Assembly: GCF_037975245.1 (NCBI RefSeq)
Contig: NC_092571.1
Location: forward strand, 25,682,564 to 25,746,563
Direction: 5' to 3'
From: Apostichopus japonicus
Taxonomy: Eukaryota; Echinodermata; Holothuroidea; Aspidochirotida; Stichopodidae
DNA length: 64,000 bases
Below the pieces are notes generated by a model. That model saw only the letters and a list, made by a program, of their open reading frames with translations, had not been told where the DNA came from and made no database searches. A program made the position numbers and the translations under genes. This document shows, in pieces, positions 45,655 to 62,150 of this stretch (its first letter is position 1; every line of letters begins with the position of its first letter).

Positions 45655-48600
45655 ATGCTTTGGGGTAATGAAAATGACATTCCTTATAATATGTATTCAA
45701 CATCATTTGAAGAGAGTGTTCTTGTCAAGTTTATTATATCATTAACATTTTCCTTAAGAAACACCAGAGACATAGTTTAGACTTTCACTAATCTCAGTTA
45801 TATGTAACAGCAATCGGATCTTACTCTTAAACCTTCACCTGAACAATCCATGAGATCAACCAGCTTTATACATCATTTCAGAATGAATAATCCATCCCAA
45901 GATGAGGATAAAGTCTTAGAATGTACGGATTCCTTCCACTTGTCTCTTTGCTACTTAATGCTATTGCACAGTTCAAGCAACATTTATCCACATTTTTACA
46001 TTTATGCATAAAGGATATGCAAAATAGGCAAATTGCTACCCAGATGTGTAAAGATGTGACTATAGTTTTCACAAGTTTATGAGACCTACTAGACACGAAT
46101 AAATATCACTTTTATTTGAAACAGTTCTTGTTTGCTGAAGACTGGCATGAATTTGCCTGTTCAAAATATTTCTTATATAATAACAGCTACAACTTATTTT
46201 CTCCTCTGCAGGAGTTGTTTTGCAACCTGGGGAACCTTACACGGAACTGGTCGTGGATGAAATTCGTCTTTCAATGGCTTCTCTGGAATTTCGTTCTAGC
46301 AAGACGACAGGTATTAATTCATCACCTTCGAACATGTTCATCTTTGATAGTCATCATCTTTGTGTCATCAACTTTGCTTCATTACCTTTGAATTTTTAAA
46401 TGCATATTACTTTCATGCTCAATCTTTAGAATTGCCTGTCTTTCATAAATATCCTTTAATATTTGAAGTCTTTGTTTATTTAAAAAATTGTAAGTTTATT
46501 TATCTCCTTTCTCTCAAGTTGACCTTTTTGTTAAAATATAAATAAATAAATATACGTAGTTATACCTGATAATGTGATGACTCAAAAGGGTTTACTGACC
46601 AGTGAGATTCCCTTTGAAATTCGAGTTTGTTATAAGAAATGCCAACAGTGATACATATCATAACATCAGACAGAGAAATAAAGCATGGAGTTTGGACTGT
46701 GTCAAAACTCCACAACATCATTTGTCAGATTATACAGTCAAACTTCGAACATTAGCCTAATTACCTGAGGCTGAACTACTGACTCTCATCAAACAAGATT
46801 ATTGCAGTTTATTTTTATTAGCAGTGCCCGAAACAATATCAGTATATTGCCTGAATTTTCAAAGAAATATCTTATGGGGGGCTCCCATGCCCCCCCCACC
46901 CTCCTATGCCGATTGTGCAAATATACAAAACTAAACTATCAATAATATACATTAACAGTATTCAACCATGACTGACCTCAATTATACCAGTTCTGTTTAG
47001 TACCTATACAGGCGTCACATACACTACTGATTCCGGTTTAATGAGTGTTACTTCATAAGACGTATGAAATTGCACAATTATATTTTTGACATAATGATTG
47101 TTTCACAATTAAAATGAAATTCGCAGCAATCATGGCACACGATCATTGTGATATTTGATTGACTTTCCCGCACTGGTCATTGTCTCTTTCACAGTTCCCT
47201 GTCCGACGTCTCACGTGGTTGTTACAACAGTAAAAGGAGAATACCTTCTCTGCTCATTGGAGAAAGGGTCCACCCCTCAGCAAAGCCTTGATCTGGTCCT
47301 GCAACCCAAAGAAGAGGTCACATTTTGTATTGAAGGGACTGGTAATTCAAAGCTATTGTTTTTGTTTTTGTTAAAGCTGATTTTTCTGTATTTTCACCAT
47401 ATGTTGTCAAAGCTATAGGTTATTACACAATTTAAGTGTTCCATTGATCAAACTAAGACAACATACTTGATTGGTTTACTCCTTTTTCTCATGTTTCCAA
47501 AGAATCTGTTCACAGAGCTAGTAAAAATTCTGTTATATTGTAAAGATACAGCATGTCTGAGAGACTTTTCTGCCAGAAGTAATAAACAGGAATTTTTGAC
47601 TTTTCTAAATTGTTTTTTCTATTTCACCAGCACTGCATAGTTATGGCATTATTAGTAATCACATTTACCAAAACAATTAAAATGCTAAAATTTTTAAATT
47701 GATAATATTTCTTTGCTTACCTTTTCTATGGTTAAAACAAGACAGAAAGGCAAGAAACTTTCATGGAAAACTTAATGTTTGCTGTGTTGATCTTTTTAAT
47801 GTAGATATCTTTCTTGTTTAAACACATCATTATCCAGGGAATAATTTGATTTGATATTACATTGCAAACAGCTATGCAAAATTGGCAAATTGCTTTAAAA
47901 ATGCAAAGAAATTCGGCTGTTTTGTACACAGAAACCATAGTTTTTAGACAAAGTTTGCAGTGACTTCAAAACTGCTATTCAAACTTGAAACTTACAAATT
48001 GTTTCTCTGATATAGGTCGACAGAATCATTCACAAATCAGACCATCTGAAAGAGTCACACAAACTTTTCATTGATGAAGTTATTCTCAATCAAAGTTCAT
48101 TCATCATCTGAGTATCATTCAGCTGCCCTTTGGTACATTCAGGATGCAGGGCAAGTCTTTAACGGTCGTCCGGTTGTCCGAGACGACCAGATTACTGTTC
48201 GGGCAACCCAGATCAGCTTTATTGAGTCGTTTGGCCGGCCGGCCCATGACTGGTTGTTTACATCAAATTAAGATTGCATGGTAACGAAATAACCTCAAAT
48301 TGGAAACAATGATAAATTGGTATCACCCCCAAAGCAGGTGTTCCATTCACTGAAACATAGACCCATGTCCTACAATGAATAAAGTGTTCATAGATATTTT
48401 TGCAACTTTTTTCTCCAGCAACCAAACTTGCTGTCAGGACAAACAGAAAGTGAGGACCTGGTTGTTTTTGAGAGACACCAGAATAAAAAAAATAAAATCT
48501 TGCCCTAGAGGGTGTTGATAAGGTCAATGATGCACACTGCACATCATAAGCATACCCATGACTTAAAAATAGAAATTGTGAATAACATACGCCAAGATTG

Positions 48601-62150: not shown

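What the first reader, a model, noticed from the sequence alone, without database searches (positions are those of the whole stretch)
45655..62150. Nucleoplasmin core domain fused to a domesticated recombinase-like protein
Thirteen phase-consistent exons join a nucleoplasmin-type chaperone fold (45655 to about 48900) to two zinc fingers, a tyrosine-recombinase-like domain, an acidic tract and a SANT-like end. Nucleoplasmin family members normally end in an acidic tail or, in FKBP39/46 types, a peptidyl-prolyl isomerase. A DNA-binding, recombinase-derived partner would couple histone chaperoning to sequence or element recognition. I know of no described protein with this order, but I cannot search.
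Basis: partly seen in the sequence, partly recalled or inferred. Interest (0 to 1): 0.9.

Follow-up and report, generated by a model that had tools for sequence, protein, structure and literature searches.

The report
Nucleoplasmin-like domain fused to dead recombinase
In this unnamed animal genome a histone-chaperone ring domain has become the front half of many DNA-binding proteins, and in the gene found here its partner appears to be a disarmed recombinase taken from a jumping gene.

Summary

The host genome explains it. Exons 8-13 descend from a mobile SET-finger-YR-SANT gene family (95 YR places; seven copies 97.5-100% alike on six contigs). The window copy lacks most of the region between fingers and YR and has lost the GH and Tyr positions: probably domesticated and unable to cut DNA.

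The NPL half belongs to a family with 30 places over the Pfam cut-off. At least 13 lead into C2H2 zinc-finger exons, one into FKBP, and only the window's into YR; 14 were not examined. Within 50 kb of an NPL place, 25 of 25 listed C2H2 places lie downstream on the NPL strand. One NPL place is followed by 19 cassettes over 65 kb, which suggests lola-like alternative ends. The window gene is probably an NPL-C2H2 relative whose DNA-binding end came from a YR element.

No transcript was available, so separate NPL and YR genes are not excluded. My searches found no description of either architecture in animals.

The parts
45655..45664 (+). exon 1, start codon and MLWG
   Evidence: donor GTAATG, phase 1; MFWG-like start as in FKBP39 (alignment)
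46212..46310 (+). exon 2, NPL domain
   Evidence: exon shared with NPL paralogues
47195..47341 (+). exon 3, NPL domain
   Evidence: best donor phase 1 in 12 of 12 NPL loci read
48854..48988 (+). exon 4, end of NPL domain and acidic stretch
50109..50228 (+). exon 5, linker
   Evidence: phase 1 at both ends; coding score
51750..51809 (+). duplicate of exon 6, optional, weak donor
   Evidence: 95.7% identical over 23 aa to exon 6; in frame if used
52061..52162 (+). exon 6, linker with VKTEQPD
   Evidence: coding score
54602..54742 (+). exon 7, linker
   Evidence: read-through meets TAG at 54853-54855 and AATAAA at 54861-54866, a possible short end
55662..56466 (+). exon 8, two CxxC finger motifs and first part of YR domain
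   Evidence: 40% identical over 137 aa and 37% over 90 aa to mobile copies; phase-1 acceptor
56994..57472 (+). exon 9, YR domain, active-site positions lost
   Evidence: 95 places in own genome
58673..58855 (+). exon 10, acidic tract
59933..59986 (+). exon 11, linker
   Evidence: individually weak
61030..61067 (+). exon 12, linker
   Evidence: individually weak
61953..62150 (+). exon 13, SANT-like end and stop
   Evidence: 82 places in own genome, downstream of YR places

Best explanation
One gene encodes a chromatin protein made by domain capture. Its front half is a member of an expanded NPL family whose other members often end in C2H2 zinc fingers. Its back half (exons 8-13) is a domesticated copy of a mobile SET-finger-YR-SANT gene that lacks the SET part and most of the region between fingers and YR, and has lost active-site positions. 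Inferred working: the NPL domain forms a small ring, as the NPL of FKBP39 does, and so displays several copies of the finger/YR module; fingers and YR fold hold DNA, perhaps still related elements, without cutting it; NPL and acidic tract hold histones; the SANT-like end may touch histone tails. The ring might also mix with NPL-C2H2 relatives. Shown from sequence: NPL homology, an open spliced frame, descent from the mobile family, loss of active-site positions, the family's C2H2 linkage. Inferred: one transcript, the ring, DNA and histone binding, targets, lack of activity.
For: NPL at 72.6 bits with donors in the family's phase. Window NPL falls in a clade of six (100/99) with L009, L020, L012 and L021, all followed by C2H2, and L024, unexamined. 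Exon 8 starts at a phase-1 acceptor, as do C2H2 ends in 12 of 13 cases. Exons 8-13 keep the family's order finger-YR-SANT on one strand. Seven mobile copies 97.5-100% alike on six contigs. Window YR keeps 24 of 30 columns invariant in nine relatives; lost ones include G197, H203 and Y207, and H198 and K99 are replaced too. No C2H2 motif on either strand of the window. No other NPL place has a listed YR place within 175 kb.
Against: No RNA. Exon 7 read-through meets a stop and AATAAA at once, so an NPL-only product is possible. Exon 8 has in-frame ATGs of its own. Linker exons 5-7 have no match in other loci. DNA beyond 64 kb was not readable, so C2H2 ends could lie further down; two C2H2 searches listed none there but scored only 150 of 1154 and 150 of 1152 candidates. 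YR profile comparison is weak (E 0.061, Probab 0.90). Of 53 columns shared by at least eight of nine relatives the window keeps only 34.
Confidence: 0.68

Rival explanations
1. Two neighbouring genes: an NPL gene that ends after exon 7 or uses ends elsewhere, and a separate domesticated YR gene that starts in or before exon 8.
For: Exon 7 read-through meets TAG and AATAAA at 54853-54866; exon 8 frame holds upstream ATGs; mobile relatives have their own front.
Against: Phase-1 donor of exon 7 and phase-1 acceptor of exon 8 fit; NPL loci routinely splice to downstream ends on the same strand; exon 8 begins at a good acceptor close before the first finger.
Confidence: 0.2
2. The NPL gene normally uses C2H2 ends beyond 64 kb, and the YR exons are one alternative end or an insertion skipped in most transcripts.
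For: One NPL place elsewhere has ends up to 75 kb away; sequence beyond the window was not read.
Against: No C2H2 place near C11:25.73-25.83 Mb in two searches, both of them capped lists.
Confidence: 0.2
3. The YR exons are a decaying mobile copy in or beside an NPL gene, without function.
For: The source family is mobile; active-site positions and the region before YR are gone.
Against: 428 codons of exons 8-9 are open, splice sites and later exons are intact, 24 of 30 invariant columns kept, exons 8-10 score as coding. Divergence may predate capture, so this is no dated test.
Confidence: 0.08

Closest known systems
NPL-FKBP proteins (Drosophila FKBP39, yeast Fpr4)
   Same: N-terminal NPL domain followed by acidic, probably unstructured stretches; this genome has one such gene (N05, C2:2.87 Mb)
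   Different: the window gene ends in fingers, YR and a SANT-like segment and has no FKBP domain
Plant HD-tuins (HD2)
   Same: NPL domain at the N-terminus and a C2H2 finger at the C-terminus (PMC4414354, passages), like the NPL-C2H2 relatives here in outline
   Different: described as plant proteins with a single finger; here several fingers per cassette, many loci, several cassettes per locus, and YR in the window gene
Domesticated Crypton YR (DUF3504) genes: KCTD1, ZMYM2/3/4, QRICH1, WOC, KIAA1958
   Same: host regulators carrying a YR that lost catalytic residues (PMC3212892, passages)
   Different: no DUF3504 match in the window family; source family carries SET and SANT-like parts; partner is NPL
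Drosophila lola and mod(mdg4), TTK-type BTB factors
   Same: one multimerising N-terminal domain, many C-terminal DNA-binding ends; 17 of 20 lola isoforms have different C2H2 fingers; TTK BTB forms hexamers (PMC11426971, abstract and passages)
   Different: front domain is NPL, not BTB; alternative use is inferred from layout only

Membership tests
NPL domain family (PF17800) | profile match over the curated cut-off at the N-terminus | tested here: met
   72.6 bits against 23.4, residues 2-93
NPL domain family (PF17800) | oligomeric ring and histone binding | not testable with these tools
   pentamer for FKBP39 in PMC4414354; a title in a search listing (PMC5225439) reports a tetramer
Nucleoplasmin/nucleophosmin (PF03066) | profile match over cut-off | tested here: not met
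   14.8 bits against 25.8
NPL-FKBP | C-terminal FKBP domain | tested here: not met
   none in the 836 aa; no FKBP_C place on C11 among 15
NPL-C2H2 family described here | C2H2 terminal exon behind the NPL exons | tested here: inconclusive
   none in the window; beyond 64 kb not read
Tyrosine recombinase | catalytic Arg, Lys, Arg, His, Tyr | tested here: not met
   window has R, R, R, D, H at the five positions; nine relatives have Arg 9 of 9, Lys 8 of 9, Arg 9 of 9, His 8 of 9, Tyr 9 of 9
Tyrosine recombinase | homology by profile | tested here: inconclusive
   hhalign collinear at all five positions but E 0.061, Probab 0.90; no PDB relative; Integrase_1 0.041 in one of ten members
Crypton DUF3504 (PF12012) | profile match | tested here: not met
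   not among the families matched by the ten members; the genome has other DUF3504 places
lola-type variable-end locus (for the NPL family, C11:3.38-3.46 Mb) | one front exon set, several same-strand ends with fitting phase | tested here: met
   one NPL place, 19 listed C2H2 places downstream; phase read for the first only; across loci 12 of 13 phase 1
lola-type variable-end locus (for the NPL family, C11:3.38-3.46 Mb) | transcripts joining one front to different ends | not testable with these tools
   no RNA data

The most novel reading that the evidence does not exclude
This animal uses the nucleoplasmin-like histone-chaperone ring as the constant front of a large set of DNA-binding regulators. 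About thirty NPL genes splice to interchangeable phase-1 terminal exons, mostly C2H2 cassettes (up to nineteen behind one NPL), with a disarmed recombinase from a mobile gene as one more end. Mixed rings would read DNA combinatorially while holding histones, a counterpart of the BTB variable-end factors of insects and possibly aimed at mobile elements.
Probability: 0.45. Interest if true: 0.93.

Novelty: new variant of a known kind. Interest (0 to 1): 0.84.

Why it matters
NPL proteins have been described in three arrangements only: alone, with FKBP, or with one plant zinc finger (PMC4414354, passage on phylogenetic overview). Here the same domain is the multiplied front end of DNA-binding proteins in an animal. 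That would tie nucleosome handling directly to sequence recognition and give a new system for asking how oligomeric regulators choose targets. The window gene adds a new case of a host protein built from a disarmed recombinase-like domain, in a genome that still holds near-identical, apparently recently moved relatives of it, so whether it restrains them can be tested.

Tried and rejected
Pfam on single exons: nothing useful. Ten-row YR profile against the PDB: only PdxS at E 1.1. PHROGs: nothing. Viral contigs: 67 pattern matches, none confirmed. AF2 of exon 9 alone: pLDDT 35, not used and not searched. DUF3504 as the YR family: rejected. Mobile copies carrying an NPL: not seen; apart from the window no NPL place has a listed YR place within 175 kb. 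MOM1 (PF25029, best 0.0013 in 3 of 10 YR members): not followed. Naming the animal: not achieved. Paper searches (NPL or nucleoplasmin with zinc fingers or deuterostomes; SET with YR) listed no animal NPL-C2H2 family, NPL-YR protein or SET-YR element; I judged this from titles and abstract starts, and the library holds open-licence papers only. Passages or sections were read in PMC4414354, PMC3212892 and PMC11426971.

Full report
1. Observation. The first seven introns are phase 1. Residues 2-93 match Pfam NPL at 72.6 bits (cut-off 23.4) and stay under the cut-off of classical nucleoplasmin (14.8 against 25.8). The nearest solved sequences are FKBP43 and Drosophila FKBP39. Linker exons 5-7 score like verified NPL exons in codon usage; exons 6a, 11 and 12 are individually weak.

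2. The genome. The window lies at C11:25682564-25746563 of an unnamed 671.6-Mb genome in 35 contigs. I could not name the animal.

3. The back half. Exon 9 has 95 places in this genome. L002 and six further copies, on six contigs, are 97.5-99.5% identical to it over about 3.49 kb, 1.5 kb on each side of the match included. A 601-base piece lying 3' of the SANT-like exon is present at 98-100% in six places on six contigs, at the spacing of the YR places, and at 94% in a seventh. These look like recent copies of a mobile unit; its ends were not mapped. Its large exon reads SET tail, acidic repeats, two CxxC fingers, about 190 aa, then YR. SET matches PF00856 at 2.5e-16 when two exon pieces are read together, and at 0.00033, under the cut-off, in the large exon alone. 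Exon 13 has 82 places; of 95 YR places 50 have one of 64 typed SANT-like places downstream on the same strand within 6 kb, and none has one in another arrangement. Window exons 8-13 are therefore one inherited block of this gene family, without the SET part and without most of the stretch between fingers and YR.

4. Is it a recombinase? Ten YR rows (window and nine relatives) have no Pfam, PHROG or PDB match of weight (Integrase_1 at 0.041 in one, MOM1 at best 0.0013 in three). Profile comparison with XerD, FimB, FimE and lambda Int lines up the first Arg, the hairpin Lys, the second Arg, GH and Tyr in order, but at E 0.061 and Probab 0.90. I take the residue pattern as good evidence and the statistics as weak. 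At these positions the nine relatives have Arg 9, Lys 8, Arg 9, His 8 and Tyr 9; the window has Arg, Arg, Arg, Asp and His. The window keeps 24 of the 30 columns that are invariant in the nine; the six lost are D3, F46, L184, G197, H203 and Y207, the last three in the active-site stretch. Of 53 columns shared by at least eight of nine it keeps 34. For comparison, eight of the nine relatives keep 30 of 30-35 in the same kind of test and L002 keeps 30 of 39. Loss of catalytic residues on domestication is known for the DUF3504 genes derived from Crypton YRs (PMC3212892, abstract and passages).

5. The front half. PF17800 has 32 places, 30 over the cut-off. I read 15-16 kb at ten of them and 12 kb at an eleventh (L020 with L056). 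By eye on a motif scan, nine of these eleven have C2H2 fingers downstream on the NPL strand (at N03 one finger at the very end of the stretch). The scan of the ten gave 33 sense and 2 antisense motif hits; a few of the sense hits (in N06 and N09) and both antisense ones do not look like real fingers. One locus has FKBP (N05) and one (N09) shows neither within about 13 kb. By position alone four more NPL places (C11:6.26, C14:1.03, C1:8.56, C1:10.04 Mb) have C2H2 places downstream. So at least 13 of 30 are NPL-C2H2, one is NPL-FKBP, one (the window) NPL-YR, one has no found partner and 14 were not examined. Pfam confirms NPL and C2H2 in sample exons.

6. Linkage is not chance. Of the 150 C2H2 rows listed (204 matches; 150 of 1154 candidates scored), 25 lie within 50 kb of an NPL place and all 25 are downstream on its strand, at ten NPL places. 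Within 100 kb the counts are 35 downstream same-strand, 4 downstream opposite and 5 upstream opposite; the opposite ones come from a neighbouring NPL locus on C1 or from the C1:19.77 Mb cluster. Many listed C2H2 rows lie on C17, which has no NPL place, so NPL does not go with C2H2 genes in general. The best-scoring acceptor before a cassette is phase 1 in 12 of 13 cases (binomial P 1.7e-5). The best donor of NPL exon 3 is phase 1 in 12 of 12 loci, and that of exon 4 in 8 of the 9 loci where the scan found the exon.

7. One front, many ends. Of 13 cassettes read, 11 end in a stop codon and two run off the stretch; N02 and N06 hold two, N08 three. Behind the NPL at C11:3458244 nineteen C2H2 places follow on the same strand, 10-75 kb downstream, with no second NPL place between. 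That is the layout of Drosophila lola and mod(mdg4), whose isoforms differ in their C-terminal ends, and whose TTK-type BTB front forms hexamers (PMC11426971, abstract and passages). Alternative use here is inferred; no RNA was available.

8. Origin of the window gene. Its NPL falls in a clade of six (100/99) with L009, L020, L012, L021 and L024; the first four are followed by C2H2 (L021 by position only), L024 was not examined. The tree has 17 rows and 76 columns and is weak elsewhere. The next-nearest distance between any NPL place and a listed YR place is 176 kb. The simplest history is an NPL-C2H2 gene that took a YR gene's exons as its end by phase-compatible splicing.

9. Working. Best reading (0.68): a single protein in which an NPL ring gathers several copies of a non-cutting DNA-binding module next to histone-binding surfaces. 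Ring formation and histone association are reported for FKBP39 (PMC4414354, abstract, passages and discussion; PMC5225439, title in a listing, reports a tetramer). Everything about DNA targets is inference. The main doubt is whether one mRNA spans exons 7 and 8, since exon 7 read-through meets a stop and AATAAA at once, and the DNA past 64 kb could not be read.

10. Novelty. PMC4414354 gives three multi-domain arrangements for NPL proteins. Searches listed no animal NPL-C2H2 family and no NPL-YR protein. I rate the window gene a new variant of a known kind, and the family behind it as the larger result.

Noticed in passing
genome G000, 30 places of PF17800 over cut-off, e.g. L009-L028: Expanded NPL family; at least 13 places lead into C2H2 zinc-finger exons on the same strand, one into FKBP.
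   Followed up: partly
G000 C11:3382901-3458666, minus strand: One NPL place followed by 19 listed C2H2 cassettes in separate frames over 65 kb; looks like a locus with many alternative ends.
   Followed up: partly
L049 (C16:3927500-3937499) and copies on C4, C6, C11, C17, C19: Mobile gene family with SET, finger, YR and SANT-like parts; seven copies 97.5-100% alike. Element ends and class not determined.
   Followed up: partly
G000 C11:6.26 Mb and C11:9.54 Mb: Two NPL-C2H2 places with identical zinc-finger cassettes (109 of 109 aa), so a recent duplication or assembly copy.
   Followed up: no
G000 C17:1.38-1.77 Mb and C1:19.76-20.77 Mb: Dense clusters of long multi-finger C2H2 frames; C17 has no NPL place.
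   Followed up: no
window 51600-52170: Tandem duplication that includes exon 6 and its intron flank; both copies keep the reading frame.
   Followed up: partly
window 58910-59590: Long GAT microsatellite in the intron after the acidic exon, open in five of six frames.
   Followed up: no
window 39629-40600 (+) and 32211-33605 (+): Two long single-exon frames with membrane-protein look: 323 aa with a fibronectin III domain (1.5e-7) and 464 aa without a Pfam match.
   Followed up: no
window 31109-31194 (+): U2 snRNA-like match just above the gathering score (49.7 against 46); 86 bases for a 192-position model, perhaps a pseudogene.
   Followed up: no
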